A stretch of DNA of 34,143 nt from a virus: positions 1 to 34,143 of IMG/VR virus record IMGVR_UViG_3300020473_000075; one strand, written 5' to 3'. Below, one piece after another: positions 23,152 through 34,125 of the stretch (position 1 is its first letter; every line of letters starts with the position of its first letter). The notes beneath the pieces were generated by a model. It searched no databases, had not been told where the DNA came from, and worked only from the letters and a program-made list of their open reading frames with translations. The position numbers were made by a program, and so were the translations under genes.

Positions 23152-24825
23152 TTATACGTTACACACTCCACCGTGACCGCTGATTTCGCAGATATCATGC
23201 GTTTCAATCGACTCTTCAAACTCTTCTCCGAGCTTATCAATTGCTTCTGAATAACTGCACTGAGTCAAAGGTTGTCCACCTCTGGCACCGTCTGGATAGC
23301 ACGTAAATCCACGCAGTCCGTGGGCATACTTTGCCAAAGTGTTTGCAAAAGGCTTTACCGTATCAGGGTTGTTTAGTTTTGTTCCCCATTTCGGCAGATT
23401 GATTGTCGAACTAATCGACATATCCACGTACTTCTGAACATCGAACTGAAACTTGATCCTGCGCTCGTAGTCTTCTGCGAGATTAAGTGCGGACTCAATA
23501 TCGTCAGGCTTAACATCGTATAGTTCCACCATTTCTTGTGCGGTGGAATCAATGACGTATTGGTAGTGCCACCTTTTGTTTCCTTTAAGATACCGACGTT
23601 TGTAGGCAACGGCGAAAATAGGTTCGATACCGGAGGAAGTTCCGCCGACGATAGCTATCGAACCCGTGGGAGCAATGGCGCGATTGGCAACAGGGCGGCT
23701 AATAGAAAGAGAGTCAGCAAAAGAACGACTAACAGTATCAGATACGCCTTGGTAAATCCCCAACCATCTATGAAGTTTCGGTGTAACTTCGTACTTTTCA
23801 TTTCTTTTAATGAGCCACTCATGTAGTCCCATAAGTCCAAGTCCGAGCCGCCTATTTTTCTCTCTGACTTCATATACTTTCTGATACGGCAGTTCTGCGC
23901 GAAGGGTGCCGCAAATAAGGAACTTTGTAGCCAACTCCGTAATAGTTCGTAGTTCAGCAAGGTTATCTATTCTCCCAAGGTTTATACTTCCTAAATTGCA
24001 GACATCGCTGTCATCGGCGCTGGTAACTTCAGTACAAGCGTTCCTTGCTGTCTCGTCCTCTTTATCGAAGAAGTTGAAACTGAAACCGGGTTCTGCTGTA
24101 CGCAGGGCTTGCTCGACGTTCTTAACGAATACGTCTCCAAGCTCTCCCGTGTTCCAATACTGCATTAGCCATTCGGTGTCGTAGTTGACCGAGATGTTTG
24201 TGTGATCCAATGGACACTTAAAGTTGAAGTCCTGTTCCTTCGCCTGTGCCATTGTGATGTTACCGACAGGCATGTCGTCCCAGTTCTTTGCAACAAGGAA
24301 GTCCTCGATGTCACCATGCTTATGGTTAAGGCTGGCATAGATAGCGGATCGTCGTGACCCGCCTTGCATTACAGATCCCCCAATGTGATCGACAAACTTC
24401 ATAGCTGGCAGGGGTCCGCTCGCCATACCCCCAGTAGACTTCAGCGGAGTACCACTAGAACGATACACCGAATAGTCGTTGCCAATGCCACCCCCTGTCA
24501 TCAGACAGGAGGCAGCTTTCCAAGCAAGGTTAGACCATGACTCACGGGTATCTTCAGAAGACTTTAACAGGTAGCAGTTGTTGAAGAACTTCTTGTCTCG
24601 ACCAGCGTAGTAGAGATACCTACCACCGGGGATAAACTTGAGGGCAGCAATGGCTTCGGTGAGTGTTTCTTTCTCGTCTGCCGTCAGGTGTTCCTGACAA
24701 ACATCCTCGACCAGCGTCTTAGCTAGTTCACTGAATGTCTCTGCACCGTCATGCCGATACTTGTGGTTGAAGATGTCCTCCGCAAACTTTGAGCGGAACA
24801 TTGGATTGGTATTCGATCTAAACAC
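23152..24825 (-). CDS. nrdJ: Class II (adenosylcobalamin-type) ribonucleotide reductase
   Basis: This 557-aa enzyme would reduce ribonucleotides to deoxyribonucleotides for phage DNA synthesis. Visible active-site elements are the first redox Cys84 (FNNCYLLK), the radical triad N262-C264-E266 (NACTEV), the second redox Cys276 (DVCNLGSINL) and a C-terminal cysteine pair C546/C555 for re-reduction. The later loop APTGSIAIVGGTSSGIEPIF is the phosphate-binding PTGS signature. No NrdB-like radical subunit gene is next to it, and the single-chain size fits class II. The GTG start at 24825 follows the previous stop directly and has GGGAG six bases upstream. Marine T7-like phages often carry it. Confidence 0.9.
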   Translation of the reverse strand: MFRSNTNPMFRSKFAEDIFNHKYRHDGAETFSELAKTLVEDVCQEHLTADEKETLTEAIAALKFIPGGRYLYYAGRDKKFFNNCYLLKSSEDTRESWSNLAWKAASCLMTGGGIGNDYSVYRSSGTPLKSTGGMASGPLPAMKFVDHIGGSVMQGGSRRSAIYASLNHKHGDIEDFLVAKNWDDMPVGNITMAQAKEQDFNFKCPLDHTNISVNYDTEWLMQYWNTGELGDVFVKNVEQALRTAEPGFSFNFFDKEDETARNACTEVTSADDSDVCNLGSINLGRIDNLAELRTITELATKFLICGTLRAELPYQKVYEVREKNRRLGLGLMGLHEWLIKRNEKYEVTPKLHRWLGIYQGVSDTVSRSFADSLSISRPVANRAIAPTGSIAIVGGTSSGIEPIFAVAYKRRYLKGNKRWHYQYVIDSTAQEMVELYDVKPDDIESALNLAEDYERRIKFQFDVQKYVDMSISSTINLPKWGTKLNNPDTVKPFANTLAKYAHGLRGFTCYPDGARGGQPLTQCSYSEAIDKLGEEFEESIETHDICEISGHGGVCNV

Positions 24826-25342: not shown

Positions 25343-26073
25343 AGGTTCACCGTGTTCGTTTTCATGTTGTAGTCATTTGCTTTGAGCAGGTATGCAAGTC
25401 GTGCATTTTCGAGAGCGTCATCCTCGTTGAGACCTGCCTTCTCGTAAGCACCCACGGTCTTCTCCCACATCCAATAGTCGTTAGATGTGCTGCCATCAGG
25501 ACGGTATCCTCCAAAAGGTGTAAGAAGCCGCTCTGCTTTTACCGGACCAATGCCGGGACAACCTTTATAGTTATCTGAGCTATCACCCATCAAAATCTGC
25601 ATATAGAACCATCGTGTACATTCGTCTGGTTCCCGCTTGACCAGATCACCATCGACAAAATGATAGCCCGGTACTTGTAGTAGGTCTTTGTCAGGTGAGA
25701 CGACTATCGTGTCTTCATCTGCCAGCATCGAGATAACATCATCAGCTTCGAGTGCTGGTATAACTCTCGTATCGTAGGTCTCGCGCAGGTGGTCTCTCGC
25801 TGCGTTCAGACACAGAGGTTTACGCTGTGACTTACGATTAGCTTTGTAGTCAGAGCTTATGTTCTTACGAAAGTTCTCCCTGTCGGTTAGGGCGACGATC
25901 ATTCCGTCTGCTTCCGTCTCTTCCATTAACCAGCCGAGATAGTTGTCTATCTCTGCGTTCACTTCTTTGGCATCGCTGTGCAATGTCCAGAAGTCTTCGT
26001 ACCATTCTATAGGTTCTTCAAATGCCGCCGCTGTACGGTAGGCAACAATGTCTCCATCAACTAACAGTCTCAA
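25321..26073 (-). CDS. 5'-3' exonuclease (T7 gp6-like, FEN family)
   Basis: The 250-aa protein degrades host DNA and removes RNA primers. Metal-binding acids are visible in LRLLVDGDIVAYR (residues 1-13), PALEADDVISMLADE, and VVSPDKDLLQV. The helix-hairpin region MGDSSDNYKGCPGIGPVKAE follows, as in the FEN superfamily. Start chosen at TTG 26073: AGGAGA lies five bases upstream, and the TTGA overlaps the stop of the homing endonuclease gene. The longer frame from 26160 lacks this support and lies inside the upstream gene. Confidence 0.9.
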   Translation of the reverse strand: MRLLVDGDIVAYRTAAAFEEPIEWYEDFWTLHSDAKEVNAEIDNYLGWLMEETEADGMIVALTDRENFRKNISSDYKANRKSQRKPLCLNAARDHLRETYDTRVIPALEADDVISMLADEDTIVVSPDKDLLQVPGYHFVDGDLVKREPDECTRWFYMQILMGDSSDNYKGCPGIGPVKAERLLTPFGGYRPDGSTSNDYWMWEKTVGAYEKAGLNEDDALENARLAYLLKANDYNMKTNTVNLWQPPTQ

Positions 26074-26474
26074 CTGTCTCTCCTGTCTAAATGTTCGTAA
26101 TGGGTTTTCTTCTGAGAACTGAGAAAGTCTTTGACTTCCACAGATTTCGTACCCCTCCACGCAATCAGTGCGAGGGCTTGGACATGCTTTTCTTTGAGGT
26201 GGTTCAGTAGCGTTTCACAGAGAACGATTGCTCGATCCCCGTAAACAGCCCATGTCCAGCTTGCTCTGGAATTGCCTTTGGCTTTTCCGTGAGTTGTGAT
26301 CGAACCACCAAACTGATCTTGAATGCTACATAGTATGTCATAGTTGCAGCTATTCACTTTGACGCAGACGGTATGCCTCTTCGTAATAAAGCAACCTTCC
26401 CCGTCGAGGTATCCAGCTAACCACTCAAGGCTAATGTGTTTCGGACCAGTTCCTTCCGATACGATATTCAGCAT
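26070..26474 (-). CDS. LAGLIDADG homing endonuclease (free-standing)
   Basis: This 134-aa protein from the ATG at 26474 has one LAGLIDADG motif, SLEWLAGYLDGEGCF (about residues 15-29), followed by the usual strands (VCVKVNSCNYDILCSIQDQF and SWTWAVYGDRAIVLCETLL) and a C-terminal helix. A single motif means it would act as a homodimer and make a site-specific double-strand cut. It is inserted between polymerase and exonuclease, overlapping the polymerase 3' end by 44 bases and the exonuclease start by four. The ribosome-binding site is poor. The exact start is uncertain, because the frame stays open upstream inside the polymerase gene. Confidence 0.85.
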   Translation of the reverse strand: MLNIVSEGTGPKHISLEWLAGYLDGEGCFITKRHTVCVKVNSCNYDILCSIQDQFGGSITTHGKAKGNSRASWTWAVYGDRAIVLCETLLNHLKEKHVQALALIAWRGTKSVEVKDFLSSQKKTHYEHLDRRDS

Positions 26475-28188
26475 CGAGGGGTGTTCTAATACCGAAGTAG
26501 TCTCCTGCTTTTTTAATAGATCGTACTGCGAGTTCACCGAATAATTCTCCTGCATCTTCATCACATTCCCACTGGACTTCATCATGAACCCACGCCACCT
26601 GTCGGCAGCGGTCACGCAGACCTTGGATGTGAACTTCTTTATTGATTTCGATAAGCCAGCGTTTGCAGATCAGAGCGCCAGCGGATTGAATAATGAGGTT
26701 GGGAGAACTGTGAGGGCTACGAACCTTCAACAGTCTGCCATCGAGACCAGTTAGATATCCTTGGTCTTCTGCCTTCTGTTTAACTTTGGTTATGAAGGAG
26801 TCGAGGGCTGGCAATTCCTTGAAGAAACGCTTCTTCAATTTAGCCCCGGTTGCCCTCGTACCTCCAACTATCTGCCCCAGCTTCTCAGCACCTGCCGAAA
26901 AGATCAGAGCATAGATAAATGTCTTGGCTTGATCGCGTGTTTCTAACCCAGCCTTCTGCTGATTAAAGGTGTGAATATCACCTTCGAGTATGGCTTTGGC
27001 ATACGCACCTTTATCGATTGGATGCATAAAGTGGGCGAGGACACGTAGCTCAAGACCTGATACGTCAGAGCCAACGAGTACCTTACCCTCTGGAACCGTG
27101 AACAACTCTCGACACTCTTTGCCGAAAGGCACACGGCAGCTAGGTATCTGAGCCATGTTGGGGTTCCGGTGTGTAGCTCTGCCTGTTACAGCACCATTAA
27201 CCAGAACCCTGCCATGTATGCGGTTATCTCCTTTCACATTCGATAACCAAGCCTGCCGACCTTCACTCAAAGCTGCGATACGTTTGGCTACAAGAAAGTA
27301 ATCAGCCAGCTTCTTGGCTTCGGGGTAGTTCAACGACTGAAGTATGGTCTCATCGATCTTCGGTTGACCGTTTGGCGTATGCTCCTTCGGCTTCCAACGA
27401 TACTTGTGCTTCAGTCTGTTTGCTATGTGGTGACGAGACTGCGGGTTGAAGGTCACTGTCGTTACCTTCTCCGTCATCTCCCCCTTCACGTACCCGTACT
27501 TTGAGTTTGTTGCCTTCGGCATGAACGGTGTACGTACTTCGTATGGCGGGAATATCTCTTGGAGTTCTTTCTCCAGTTTCTCTCGCTGTTCTTCGAGAGA
27601 TGTTGCGAGATTCCATGCCTTGTCTTTGTCGAACAGAAAACCGTGATGCTCTTGCGCGGAGCATATTCGATGCACGGCGTGTTCGAGCGCGATACTTTTT
27701 TTTGAGAACTTCTTAGAAGCTAAGTAATCGTGGAGTGCGTGAGTGACATGCACATCTTGCACGGCATACTCCAGCATCTCTTCGGTGAGAATATCCCACG
27801 GTCCTTCAAAGTCTCCTTTCAATTTATCAAGCCGAAGACCCCATGCCTTGAGGCTATGGGAACCGTTGAGCCGGGGAGGTAAATCTTTCTTGTCGAAGTC
27901 TCGACGCGATATGTCTGGAGCTACTAGCCTAGCCCACACCAAGGTATCTAATACCGAAGCTGACTTCGGTTTAAAGTCAGGTTCAAACTTCTGTATGACA
28001 GGTATGTCGAAGTCGATAATGTTGTGACCGATAATCTCATCGGCTTCCAACAGAACAGGCAGAGCGTCACGCCAGTTAGATGTATAGGTCGTGATGTTGT
28101 CGTCTGCTTTATCGATGTCCTTGGTAATCAAACAGTGAATGACATCAGGGTCGAGACCGTTTGTTTCAATATCAAAGACAAGCCTAAT
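26431..28188 (-). CDS. DNA polymerase, family A (T7 gp5-like), apparent ATT start
   Basis: The 585-aa replicative polymerase has an N-terminal proofreading domain with exo I motif VFDIETNGLDP (D5/E7), GHNIIDFDIP (exo II) and YAVQDVHVTHAL (exo III). The polymerase domain has motif A SDVSGLELRVLAHF (about 373-386), motif B KTFIYALIFSAGAEKLGQIV, and motif C WVHDEVQWEC (about 530). It ends GRNWSETH, like T7 gp5. The exo I motif lies upstream of every in-frame ATG/GTG/TTG. The only start giving the family N-terminus is ATT at 28188, with GGAG seven bases before it. It is shorter than T7 gp5 (704 aa). Palindrome copy F is read in frame at about residues 72-79. Confidence 0.93.
   Translation of the reverse strand: MRLVFDIETNGLDPDVIHCLITKDIDKADDNITTYTSNWRDALPVLLEADEIIGHNIIDFDIPVIQKFEPDFKPKSASVLDTLVWARLVAPDISRRDFDKKDLPPRLNGSHSLKAWGLRLDKLKGDFEGPWDILTEEMLEYAVQDVHVTHALHDYLASKKFSKKSIALEHAVHRICSAQEHHGFLFDKDKAWNLATSLEEQREKLEKELQEIFPPYEVRTPFMPKATNSKYGYVKGEMTEKVTTVTFNPQSRHHIANRLKHKYRWKPKEHTPNGQPKIDETILQSLNYPEAKKLADYFLVAKRIAALSEGRQAWLSNVKGDNRIHGRVLVNGAVTGRATHRNPNMAQIPSCRVPFGKECRELFTVPEGKVLVGSDVSGLELRVLAHFMHPIDKGAYAKAILEGDIHTFNQQKAGLETRDQAKTFIYALIFSAGAEKLGQIVGGTRATGAKLKKRFFKELPALDSFITKVKQKAEDQGYLTGLDGRLLKVRSPHSSPNLIIQSAGALICKRWLIEINKEVHIQGLRDRCRQVAWVHDEVQWECDEDAGELFGELAVRSIKKAGDYFGIRTPLDAEYRIGRNWSETH
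27949..27975. repeat. Dispersed palindrome copy F, inside the DNA polymerase gene
   Basis: Stem CCGAAG (27954-27959), loop CTGA, stem CTTCGG (27964-27969), left flank CTAATA and right flank TTTAAA. It is translated as Lys-Pro-Lys-Ser-Ala-Ser-Val-Leu in the loop between exo II and the next conserved block DTLVWARLVAP. The reading frame relative to the palindrome is the same as in copy E. Confidence 0.75.
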
Positions 28189-31428: not shown

Positions 31429-31454
31429 TAATTCCGAAGCTAACTTCGGTTTTA
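31429..31454. repeat. Dispersed palindrome copy G (behind RNA polymerase)
   Basis: Stem CCGAAG (31434-31439), loop CTAA, stem CTTCGG (31444-31449), left flank TAATT and right flank TTTTA. It overlaps the RNA polymerase stop codon and stands 20 bases upstream of the SSB start. T7 has a promoter pair and an RNase III site in this interval. Confidence 0.85.
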
Positions 31455-33929
31455 TGAGAAGAAGTGATCTGACTTCAGAACACTTTCGATATTAAAATCC
31501 CCTCGCTTCGGTACGTCTGGTAAACGATCATGAAACTTAGAAGAAAGAAGGGGTTTAAGATGGTCCCTAATTGCCTGTAGGTGATCGGTGTCACGATACA
31601 GTTCGACAAACGCCTCACGGGTACACTGACTGAGTATCGGAGTATCAACGGCAGTGGTTCCGTAGCTGTCGTGGATCATACAGAACGCCTGCACACCCTG
31701 ATCCATCGCCTTGTTCATCGTCATGTACATGGCACTGGCATCAAGTGAGTGAATGAAGTTCGCAGCGATACCGTTGACCATCGCATGACGGTCATAGCGG
31801 TACTTCGTAGACACATTCAAGGAAAGTCGAATCGAGTCACCAAGCAGGCGCATCTTCACCCGACTAGGCTTCATGTCGTGGTAAGCCTGTCGAACGTACA
31901 TGCCTGTCGGTGTGATCCAAGAGATCGGTATGCCGTGTTGAAGACAGACACTGGTCAGGTCTTGCAGGTATTTCATACCCACCATAGCACTTCCGACAGT
32001 CTGCTTGATCGATGCCCATATCTCATTCGTCAACCAGATGGCTTGCTTGAAATATTTTCCACCAAAAGGCTCGGGGATTCCTTGGTCGAGACGATCAGCA
32101 ATCCACTCATCGATACCATCTGTCATCGAGAATCGCTTGGCACCGTAGGATAGCGTCATCGTTGGCGTCTTTGCCAAGGCACGATCCAATCCGTAGTCCA
32201 ACCAGCCTTGCGCTATCTCTTTACCTTCGAGGTCAAGCTCAACGATACGCTTCAGTCGATCTATGAGAATGTCGAGCGCCGCTACGTAGGCATCTCCCGG
32301 TTTGTCGCCGGGTGCTAGGTTCACCAACTCTGCGGCAACGGGATCGAGCAGGTTCGCTGCCCAGTGTTGTATCGAATTGCATGTCCCGTCACGCATGACC
32401 GGGAGTGTCGTATAGAATGCGCTGCCGTCACGCTTCCATCCTAGCCACTCCTTACAGAAGGCGAGGGCTGTGAAAGATTTCTTCCCAGCCTCACACCAGA
32501 ACCTGTTATCGAACGGGTTGTCGCCTGCCTTACAGATTTCTTCGGAGTGCTGCTCGATCCACTCAACACGTTCATCGAGTGTGCCTTTGTCCTCTCCAAA
32601 GAGTGAAGCGCCGTAGATAGCAAGCTCTCTGGCACCCTCGTCGGTCATCGCCTTGCCTTCTGCGTCACCAAACCTCAACAGACTACGACCAAGGTCAGCG
32701 CCTTGCGGCTGAAGGTACGATGTCATTGGATATGCCCGGCCTCGAAAGTCACAGGTGTAGACAAAGTACATTTCGTCGTGGTGACAGAATTGTTGCGCGA
32801 CCCTCAACGTATCGCCAACAAGGCGACGATGGCTTTTGCTTCTCGCCTTCTTGGTTCGAGCTTTCACCGCTTCATGCTTCCACAGCTTCCGCGCTTCAGC
32901 GTTGGTCTCAATGTCGTGTGGCTTCGGTGGTAAGATCACTTCGCCTTGCGCTGGCAATCGACCAAGAGTGCTTTCATTATCCCAAAGTTCTTGCACGACC
33001 TTGAGCATGTCCGCATCGACACGCCATCGAGTGTCTTGCAGAGCGTTGATCGGTCGAAGCATATCGGACAGATCGAAATTGCTCAGTTCATGTAGATACT
33101 CAGTAGAGCGTGCCTTTATGAGCGCAGGTTGTTTGATGTTTGGTGTAATGTACCCACCCGTCATGTTTTTCGACGGGTCTCGATCAGGCATCACACCACC
33201 CCAAGGACGAGGACGCACCACCATCGGCAGGTACTCGGGTTCGTTGAGACCTTGGAGGAAATCTTTGTGACTGATCCACTTCACTGCCTGTTCCGACAGT
33301 TCGATACACCACTGCTTCTTCTTCTGTGTATCCTTGCGGTAAATCTCGATCAGATCGGTATGGTCATGGATAGCCTCAAGCATACGAACGCCGACCATCG
33401 CTTTCTGTTTCTGTGTCCAAAGCCTCAAGTCTATGCCGTGTGTTGTAGCTGACTGAAATAACTTTCGACGCTTGTAGCGGTAGCCGAAACTCCGCGAGAA
33501 CACATCAGCGTATGTGATTTTGTAGAGTTGCGGGTTCGCTTCCTCAAAGATACGCGCCTTGATTTCATCTTCGATCTTGCGACCAACATCAGACGCAACT
33601 TTAGTTAAACTCGTAGACTTGAAGGTTGAGTTCAGCATAGCTGACAAAGCTATACCCGCTGTGACATCTGGTTCGATCATCTGAAGCAGTTTAATTGCCT
33701 CGACCTTTCGACCAGCTTTGCCGTTCTCCATGATGTCTGTGGTCTGTTCACGTATCGAAGCGGCAATCGTATCGATGTAGTGAGCAACCATTGCACGACC
33801 TGATTTGGTCATGCTCATGTTCTCTGATTCTTTGAGTTGTTTGTTGCGCGACTTCACTCTCTCGATGCCGCGCTGTCTCGATTGCTTTTCGAGAGCAATC
33901 TGTTCGTTAAATTTTGTTCCTAAATCCAA
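31452..33929 (-). CDS. T7-type single-subunit DNA-directed RNA polymerase
   Basis: This 825-aa protein (T7 gp1 is 883 aa) would transcribe the middle and late genes from phage promoters. Catalytic elements are motif A RDGTCNSIQHW (Asp about residue 513), the O-helix region LAKTPTMTLSYGAKRFSM (about 585-602) and motif C MIHDSYG (about 750). The DFRGRAYPMTSYLQPQGADL block (about 390-410) is also typical. It ends in SDHFFS, comparable to the aromatic C-terminus of T7. The start is TTG 33929, with AGAGGA seven bases upstream; this ribosome-binding site is inside a perfect 7-bp hairpin. The next in-frame Met is residue 38. Confidence 0.96.
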   Translation of the reverse strand: MDLGTKFNEQIALEKQSRQRGIERVKSRNKQLKESENMSMTKSGRAMVAHYIDTIAASIREQTTDIMENGKAGRKVEAIKLLQMIEPDVTAGIALSAMLNSTFKSTSLTKVASDVGRKIEDEIKARIFEEANPQLYKITYADVFSRSFGYRYKRRKLFQSATTHGIDLRLWTQKQKAMVGVRMLEAIHDHTDLIEIYRKDTQKKKQWCIELSEQAVKWISHKDFLQGLNEPEYLPMVVRPRPWGGVMPDRDPSKNMTGGYITPNIKQPALIKARSTEYLHELSNFDLSDMLRPINALQDTRWRVDADMLKVVQELWDNESTLGRLPAQGEVILPPKPHDIETNAEARKLWKHEAVKARTKKARSKSHRRLVGDTLRVAQQFCHHDEMYFVYTCDFRGRAYPMTSYLQPQGADLGRSLLRFGDAEGKAMTDEGARELAIYGASLFGEDKGTLDERVEWIEQHSEEICKAGDNPFDNRFWCEAGKKSFTALAFCKEWLGWKRDGSAFYTTLPVMRDGTCNSIQHWAANLLDPVAAELVNLAPGDKPGDAYVAALDILIDRLKRIVELDLEGKEIAQGWLDYGLDRALAKTPTMTLSYGAKRFSMTDGIDEWIADRLDQGIPEPFGGKYFKQAIWLTNEIWASIKQTVGSAMVGMKYLQDLTSVCLQHGIPISWITPTGMYVRQAYHDMKPSRVKMRLLGDSIRLSLNVSTKYRYDRHAMVNGIAANFIHSLDASAMYMTMNKAMDQGVQAFCMIHDSYGTTAVDTPILSQCTREAFVELYRDTDHLQAIRDHLKPLLSSKFHDRLPDVPKRGDFNIESVLKSDHFFS

Positions 33930-33935
33930 CGGTAT

Positions 33936-33959
33936 ATCCTCTGTAATGTGTCAGAGGAT
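33936..33959 (-). promoter_or_regulatory. Hairpin sequestering the RNA polymerase ribosome-binding site
   Basis: On the minus strand ATCCTCT (33959-33953), a 10-base loop and AGAGGAT (33942-33936) form a perfect 7-bp stem. The downstream arm is the Shine-Dalgarno sequence for the TTG start at 33929, and the upstream arm contains CCTC, an anti-Shine-Dalgarno copy. Closing the hairpin would block translation of the RNA polymerase; a ligand, protein, RNase or upstream folding could open it. Confidence 0.6.
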
Positions 33960-33964
33960 GGTAG

Positions 33965-34125
33965 CGAAGGTGTATTCGACACAGATGTTGGTATTGATAA
34001 GGTAGGTAGATCACTCTAGCGGTGGTGTATTAGGCATACAGCGGATTTGCAGTCCTCCGCATAGCCACTCTGCCACCGGACCTTCGTTTAATATCAATAA
34101 CTTAGCTGTGTTTCATACACCTTCG
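33965..34125. repeat. Large imperfect inverted repeat around a tRNA-like core (candidate attP)
   Basis: The 20-base arm CGAAGGTGTATTCGACACAG (33965-33984, plus strand) recurs inverted as CGAAGGTGTATGAAACACAG (34125-34106, minus strand), 17 of 20 identical. Both are followed, after 7 or 6 bases, by TATTGATA (33992-33999 and 34099-34092). Inside lie inverted CGGTGG/CCACCG (34020-34025 and 34073-34078) and a hairpin around a tRNA-Cys-like anticodon. Nested inverted arms around a tRNA-derived core are the layout expected of a tyrosine-integrase attachment site. No integrase is in the window. Confidence 0.6.
34020..34082 (-). other. tRNA-Cys-like fragment (5' half and anticodon arm only)
   Basis: On the minus strand the sequence GGCAGAGTGGCTATGC reads as a typical D arm. 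Next come an anticodon stem and the loop CTGCAAA with anticodon GCA (Cys). Downstream the T arm (GTTCGA-type loop) is absent and the acceptor strands do not match a normal cloverleaf, so this is not a functional tRNA by eye. Instead the 3' part pairs back to the 5' part as one long imperfect hairpin. It could be the host-derived core of an attachment site or a decayed tRNA gene. Confidence 0.5.

What the first reader, a model, noticed from the sequence alone, without database searches (positions are those of the whole stretch)
33965..34125. Nested ~160-bp inverted repeat built around a tRNA-Cys-like anticodon hairpin, next to the RNA polymerase gene
Seen: two 20-base arms (17/20 identical, inverted), each followed by TATTGATA; inner CGGTGG/CCACCG arms; and a central anticodon-loop sequence CTGCAAA (GCA) inside a D-arm/anticodon-arm segment with no T arm. 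Known: temperate T7-like marine phages can integrate into tRNA genes with attP close to the RNA polymerase end, and integrases bind inverted arm sites around a core that often lies in the anticodon stem-loop. Inference: this is attP of a temperate T7-like phage, or else a structured leader RNA or terminus. Unusually, the matched part looks like the 5' half of the tRNA, whereas most tRNA attP cores match the 3' half.
Basis: partly seen in the sequence, partly recalled or inferred. Interest (0 to 1): 0.75.

Follow-up and report, generated by a model that had tools for sequence, protein, structure and literature searches.

The report
Temperate T7-like phage's tRNA-Cys attachment site
This is the DNA site through which a T7-like marine virus inserts itself into a bacterial cysteine-tRNA gene, unusually replacing the front half of that gene with its own copy, and two marine bacterial genomes still carry the scar of such an insertion.

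Summary
The structure is real, and it is attP of a temperate T7-like (Autographiviridae) phage. The window, an IMG/VR fragment, stops 18 bp past it. Relatives continue into a tyrosine integrase, in the order MarR-type regulator, int, structure, RNA polymerase. A 40-nt core (34082 to 34043, minus strand) is the 5' half of an alphaproteobacterial tRNA-Cys. A scan of 84,980 genomes with this core (two C/T positions left open) found three loci, all intact tRNA-Cys genes. Two carry an attR scar: the 3' end of this integrase gene and the phage left arm, fused to tRNA-Cys. The phage therefore supplied the tRNA's 5' half and its upstream DNA.

The nested inverted repeat is attP architecture. Outer arms span 161 bp here and 150-162 bp in several cultured pelagiphages. 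The int-side TATTGATA box is a perfect IHF consensus in six phages and in the scar. The tRNA-mimicking inner hairpin is not significant in the window (p=0.25), so a folded-RNA reading is weak.

Carrying the 5' tRNA half is rare among bacterial integrases generally, but recurs in P-SSP7 and pelagiphage attP sites. A new member of a known kind, now with natural integration evidence.

The parts
33965..34125 (-). attP: concentric inverted repeat between int (beyond the window end) and RNAP
   Evidence: same span (161 bp) in L001 and L002
34043..34082 (-). attP core: 5' half of tRNA-Cys(GCA), GGTCCGGTGGCAGAGTGGCTATGCGGAGGACTGCAAATCC
   Evidence: matches intact tRNA-Cys genes in L011, L012, L013
34046..34052 (-). 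anticodon loop CTGCAAA, near the centre of the concentric repeats; probable strand-exchange region (inferred)
34106..34125 (-). outer arm on the int side, CGAAGGTGTAT..., probable integrase arm site (inferred)
   Evidence: kept in the L012/L013 scars
33965..33984 (+). outer arm on the RNAP side, inverted copy of the int-side arm
34092..34104 (+).
   Evidence: perfect match in L001, L002, L007, L008, L014 and the L012 scar
33992..33999 (+). TATTGATA, inverted partner of the IHF-like box; not a full IHF consensus on this side
34020..34025 (+). CGGTGG, inner arm; pairs with 34073-34078
   Evidence: pairing of this side with the tRNA half is not above chance in the window
34073..34078 (+). CCACCG, inner arm, part of the tRNA acceptor/D region
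31452..33929 (-). T7-like single-subunit RNA polymerase gene, first gene downstream of attP (TTG start)
   Evidence: Pfam RNA_pol and RPOL_N; phrog_414

Best explanation
It is the attP of a temperate T7-like phage that integrates into the tRNA-Cys(GCA) gene of a marine alphaproteobacterial host. The tyrosine integrase gene lies just outside the window, beyond 34143. The proposed mechanism is lambda-like: integrase binds the two inverted outer arms, IHF bends the DNA at the conserved site between arm and core, and strand exchange takes place in the anticodon region of the core. [quoted passage not shown] Shown: anatomy, conservation, gene order in relatives, the host tRNA match, and attR scars with an intact hybrid tRNA. 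Inferred: which proteins bind which boxes, the exact crossover point, the attL side for this phage, and how the rebuilt tRNA is transcribed.
For: Tyrosine integrase (PF00589) immediately upstream in L002 and L001, then this structure, then RNAP. The 40-nt core found in only three of the scanned genome loci, all intact tRNA-Cys genes. L012 and L013: integrase 3' end plus phage arm fused to an intact tRNA-Cys whose 3' half is host sequence; 307 bp at 91.5% identity to L001. Only one tRNA-Cys match in each of those genomes. Same concentric layout in pelagiphages, outer spans 150-162 bp against 161 here, with tRNA 5' halves at the centre. Arm complementarity z -6.4, core self-pairing p=0.25. Perfect IHF consensus at the same place in six phages and the scar.
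Against: The window itself lacks int, which is inferred from relatives. The scars come from two MAGs that share one event; a chimera is unlikely because two assemblies agree, but reads were not checked. No whole prophage of this lineage was found. No convincing promoter for the rebuilt tRNA is visible in the phage arm.
Confidence: 0.95

Rival explanations
1. A structured RNA in the int-RNAP transcript: a leader, an RNase III-type processing site as in T7 early mRNA, or a tRNA mimic. It could coexist with attP function.
For: Strong fold on either strand. Three compensatory changes in the outer arms among window, L001 and L002.
Against: The tRNA half does not pair with its 3' neighbour above chance in the window and most relatives. 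Six of 49 consensus pairs are broken among three close relatives. Identity to a host tRNA and the attR scars are unexplained by it. Matching arms are also expected if both must bind the same integrase.
Confidence: 0.12
2. A recombination site used as a folded single strand, like integron attC or the CTXphi attP hairpin.
For: Long imperfect hairpin with bulges centred on the recombination core.
Against: The core pairs as an ordinary 40-nt duplex with attB and does not fold on itself above chance. A perfect IHF consensus and paired arms point to the lambda-type duplex mechanism.
Confidence: 0.03
3. A genome terminus or a decayed, captured tRNA without a role in integration.
For: An incomplete tRNA at the contig end.
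Against: L001 and L002 continue through the same site into int, so it is internal. The 5' half is conserved in phages whose integrases are about 45-50% identical, while the sequence after it diverges. Scars show it was used.
Confidence: 0.02

Closest known systems
attP of T7-like cyanophages P-SSP7 and S-TIP37 (tRNA-Leu)
   Same: attP directly downstream of int and upstream of RNAP; in P-SSP7 the core reads as a tRNA-Leu 5' half; integration needing int and attP was shown for S-TIP37 (PMC8776855)
   Different: tRNA-Leu instead of tRNA-Cys; cyanobacterial hosts; flank complementarity in P-SSP7 is not significant; no stable lysogens were found there
attP of HTVC019P-type pelagiphages (HTVC019P, 105P, 109P, 201P, 309P)
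   Same: MarR, int, attP, RNAP order; concentric inverted arms with spans 150-162 bp; tRNA 5'-half cores in those where the half could be assigned
   Different: different arm sequences and tRNAs (Leu, Arg, Cys); in HTVC201P and similar phages the tRNA-Cys half lies on the other strand; no perfect IHF consensus found there
LUZ100, vTRX32-1 and the G351 prophage (T7-like phages carrying a complete tRNA-Leu near int)
   Same: T7-like prophage or phage with int next to RNAP; in G351 the host tRNA promoter side faces RNAP after integration
   Different: they carry a complete replacement tRNA and a short core (15 bp in G351), rather than rebuilding the host tRNA from a 5' half
pTN3-like archaeal integrases (5'-half attB; PMC8371274)
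   Same: the element supplies the tRNA 5' half, so the rebuilt tRNA is expressed from element DNA
   Different: archaeal elements; in the suicidal pTN3 type integration splits the integrase gene, whereas here attP lies outside int
Lambda attP
   Same: paired arm sites, IHF site between arm and core, tyrosine integrase (the lambda features are from general knowledge)
   Different: core in a tRNA gene, one symmetrical pair of long inverted arms, no Xis identified

Membership tests
attP of temperate T7-like (Autographiviridae) phages, P-SSP7/HTVC019P type | tyrosine integrase directly next to the site, site between int and T7-like RNAP | tested here: met
   L001 and L002; the window itself is cut before int
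attP of temperate T7-like (Autographiviridae) phages, P-SSP7/HTVC019P type | core identical to part of a host tRNA gene | tested here: met
   40 nt in three intact tRNA-Cys genes
attP of temperate T7-like (Autographiviridae) phages, P-SSP7/HTVC019P type | natural integration junction at that tRNA | tested here: met
   attR scars in L012 and L013
attP of temperate T7-like (Autographiviridae) phages, P-SSP7/HTVC019P type | MarR-type regulator upstream of int | tested here: met
   L002:1507-1896, phrog_9665 transcriptional regulator, E 2e-27; Pfam gave no family
attP of temperate T7-like (Autographiviridae) phages, P-SSP7/HTVC019P type | integration demonstrated experimentally | not testable with these tools
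   needs recombination assay
Lambda-type (heterobivalent Int plus IHF) attP | repeated arm sites on both sides of the core | tested here: met
   inverted arms, flank duplex z -6.4
Lambda-type (heterobivalent Int plus IHF) attP | IHF site between arm and core | tested here: met
   consensus match only, conserved in six phages and the scar
Lambda-type (heterobivalent Int plus IHF) attP | Int N-terminal arm-binding domain binds the arms | not tested
   Pfam matched only the catalytic domain; no binding data
functional tRNA gene | complete cloverleaf | tested here: not met
   ARAGORN and Rfam find none
folded single-strand recombination site (attC/CTXphi type) | core self-pairing above chance | tested here: not met
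   z -0.6, p=0.25 in the window

The most novel reading that the evidence does not exclude
[quoted passage not shown] DNA that leads into the phage RNAP in the free phage comes to lead into the host's tRNA-Cys in the lysogen, and the host tRNA promoter comes to face RNAP. The nested hairpin (or, in relatives such as the G351 prophage, a terminator-like hairpin) would then keep that promoter from switching on the lytic polymerase. Lysogeny in T7-like phages would thus be set partly by recombination itself. The geometry is shown by the scars and by G351; the regulatory effect is untested.
Probability: 0.25. Interest if true: 0.75.

Novelty: new member of a known kind. Interest (0 to 1): 0.5.

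Why it matters
Whether integrase-carrying marine T7-like phages are inherited as prophages in nature is debated; for T7-like cyanophages, integration without stable lysogeny was reported (PMC8776855). The scars in two marine alphaproteobacterial MAGs show that an integration by this lineage was inherited, and that the bacteria kept the phage-supplied half of the only tRNA-Cys gene found in them. Recurrence of tRNA 5'-half cores here, in P-SSP7 and in pelagiphages marks a mode of integration described as seldom encountered in bacteria (PMC8371274). The position of attP between int and RNAP makes a promoter-exchange model of lysogeny directly testable, and the core gives a host for an otherwise unassigned phage group.

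Tried and rejected
ARAGORN and Rfam gave nothing. Sigma-70 promoter and terminator scans found no convincing promoter for the rebuilt tRNA. Search for whole prophages of this lineage: the integrase in the family, order and 385 class members gave only the L012/L013 remnants and one unrelated integrase, L030; a host 3'-half pattern in viral contigs found nothing. I first read the G351 prophage as another 5'-half case; corrected, it carries a complete tRNA-Leu and a 15-bp core, so it supports the geometry but not half-tRNA restoration (the attP and attB strings printed used the wrong core and are superseded). The tRNA-like inner hairpin as a selected structure was rejected after shuffling only the non-tRNA side. 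Covariation in the arms rests on three sequences and is equally expected if two arm sites must stay alike, so I did not build on it. HTVC019P's core half could not be assigned with confidence.

Full report
Observation. The 17/20 inverted pair is the only one of its kind within 200 nt in the whole window, and the int-RNAP gap folds 4.7 standard deviations below shuffles. There is no complete tRNA.

Where it lies. The window is a linear IMG/VR record that ends 18 bp past the outer arm. Three viral contigs carry RNAP relatives at 80-94% identity. In L002 the order on the RNAP strand is: MarR-type regulator, tyrosine integrase (344 aa), this structure, RNAP. L001 begins inside the integrase and then runs the same way. 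The window has no integrase of its own, because its end cuts the locus. More distant relatives L007, L008 and L014 (integrases 45-50% identical to that of L002) keep the same order.

What the core is. Between relatives the conserved stretch runs from GGTCCGG to GCAAATCC and then diverges, most clearly in L008. A scan of 84,980 species genomes with this 40-nt core (two C/T positions left open) gave three loci, all intact tRNA-Cys(GCA) genes in alphaproteobacterial MAGs. The core is the 5' half of that tRNA: acceptor strand, D arm and anticodon arm.

Integration scars. L011 (SP8) has ordinary host DNA and a TTGACC-N17-TATACC promoter-like pair upstream of tRNA-Cys. L012 (SAT126) and L013 (UBA6544) have instead the 3' end of this integrase gene, then the phage arm GTCGAAGGTGTACGAAACG, then the IHF-like box, then the tRNA-Cys, whose 3' half is host sequence. 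In L012, 307 bp are 91.5% identical to L001. Both MAGs show the same join of the integrase remnant to a fragment of the host gene that lies beside tRNA-Cys in L011, so most of the prophage has been deleted while the tRNA side was kept. Each of these genomes gives one tRNA-Cys match; the assemblies may be incomplete. The phage therefore supplied the 5' half and upstream DNA of a tRNA gene that the bacteria still keep intact.

What the nested repeats are. In the int-RNAP gap of cultured pelagiphages the same layout appears: outer inverted arms spanning 156 bp (HTVC019P), 161 (HTVC105P), 162 (HTVC109P), 150 (HTVC201P) and 151 (HTVC309P), against 161 here, centred within a few bases of a tRNA anticodon-loop sequence. 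With the core set aside, the two flanks are complementary far beyond chance: z -6.4 here and -3.8 to -8.0 in the other phages tested, except HTVC201P (-1.9) and P-SSP7 (-0.9). In contrast, the tRNA half pairs with the sequence after it no better than shuffles here (p=0.25) and in most others; the lowest p values are about 0.02, in L002 and L007. So the arms are under selection and the tRNA-like hairpin is, at best, weakly so, which is what integrase arm sites around a host-derived core should look like. The int-side box is a perfect WATCAANNNNTTR IHF consensus in all six window-type phages and in the scar; by simple arithmetic such a match is expected in under 1% of stretches this long. Arm and IHF function are inferred from the lambda precedent.

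The 5' half. A review states that rebuilt bacterial tRNA genes keep their own promoter with very few exceptions, and that 5'-half sites, where the element's DNA drives the tRNA, are seldom met in bacteria (PMC8371274). Another paper describes the usual case, a shared core that includes the 3' half (PMC10865867). Here, in P-SSP7 and in the pelagiphages where the half could be assigned, the core is the 5' half. I did not find this stated for the group in the papers I could read.

Independent check of the geometry. A T7-like prophage of about 40.5 kb in genome G351 has, at one end, a host tRNA-Leu 5' half facing RNAP across a terminator-like hairpin (AAACCCTAGGCTTTCTGCCTGGGGTTTTTC, read by eye and folded; the pattern scan did not list it). 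At the other end lie int, a complete phage tRNA-Leu, and the host tRNA 3' part. Joining the two flanks over the shared 15-bp core gives an intact tRNA-Leu(CAA). This phage restores tRNA function with a whole tRNA rather than a half, but it shows that integration does place RNAP behind the host tRNA promoter.

How it most likely works. Int binds the two outer arms, IHF bends the DNA, and exchange occurs in the anticodon region. The host tRNA-Cys is rebuilt with a phage 5' half, and RNAP is moved behind the displaced host tRNA promoter. What transcribes tRNA-Cys after integration is open: no good promoter is visible in the phage arm, so read-through from int is possible.

Limits. Binding, recombination and expression are not measured. 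The scars are two MAGs that share one event. Papers outside the open library could not be read, including the primary papers on pelagiphage integration and on tRNA sublocation of integrases.

Noticed in passing
window 33936-33959 (minus strand), just upstream of the RNAP start at 33929: An 8-bp hairpin ATCCTCTG/CAGAGGAT covers the Shine-Dalgarno-like AGAGG of RNAP. Similar hairpins covering the SD-like sequence occur in L001, L002, L008 and L014, which suggests translational control of RNAP.
   Followed up: partly
window 26070-26615 (minus strand); L008:13381-13863: A LAGLIDADG-like homing endonuclease ORF (Pfam E 0.0011, below the curated cut-off) lies between the DNA polymerase and exonuclease genes, overlapping both; a similar ORF sits at the same place in L008.
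   Followed up: partly
window 23152-24825 (minus strand): A ribonucleotide reductase large-chain gene (Ribonuc_red_lgC, E 3e-49).
   Followed up: no
L085:1-760: A relative of L014 keeps the same attP, but the sequence upstream carries only the last bases of an integrase and another ORF instead: attP apparently retained after loss of int, or a rearranged contig.
   Followed up: no
HTVC021P, 022P, 131P, 201P, 304P int-RNAP gap (L036, L071-L073, L076): The tRNA-Cys 5' half lies on the strand opposite to int, so in these phages the DNA upstream of a rebuilt tRNA would come from the RNAP side.
   Followed up: partly
L100:3128-3480 and L102:9066-10300 (genome G351): Complete T7-like prophage of about 40.5 kb in an alphaproteobacterial chromosome, in tRNA-Leu(CAA), with a complete replacement tRNA-Leu beside int and a terminator-like hairpin between the host tRNA half and RNAP.
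   Followed up: partly
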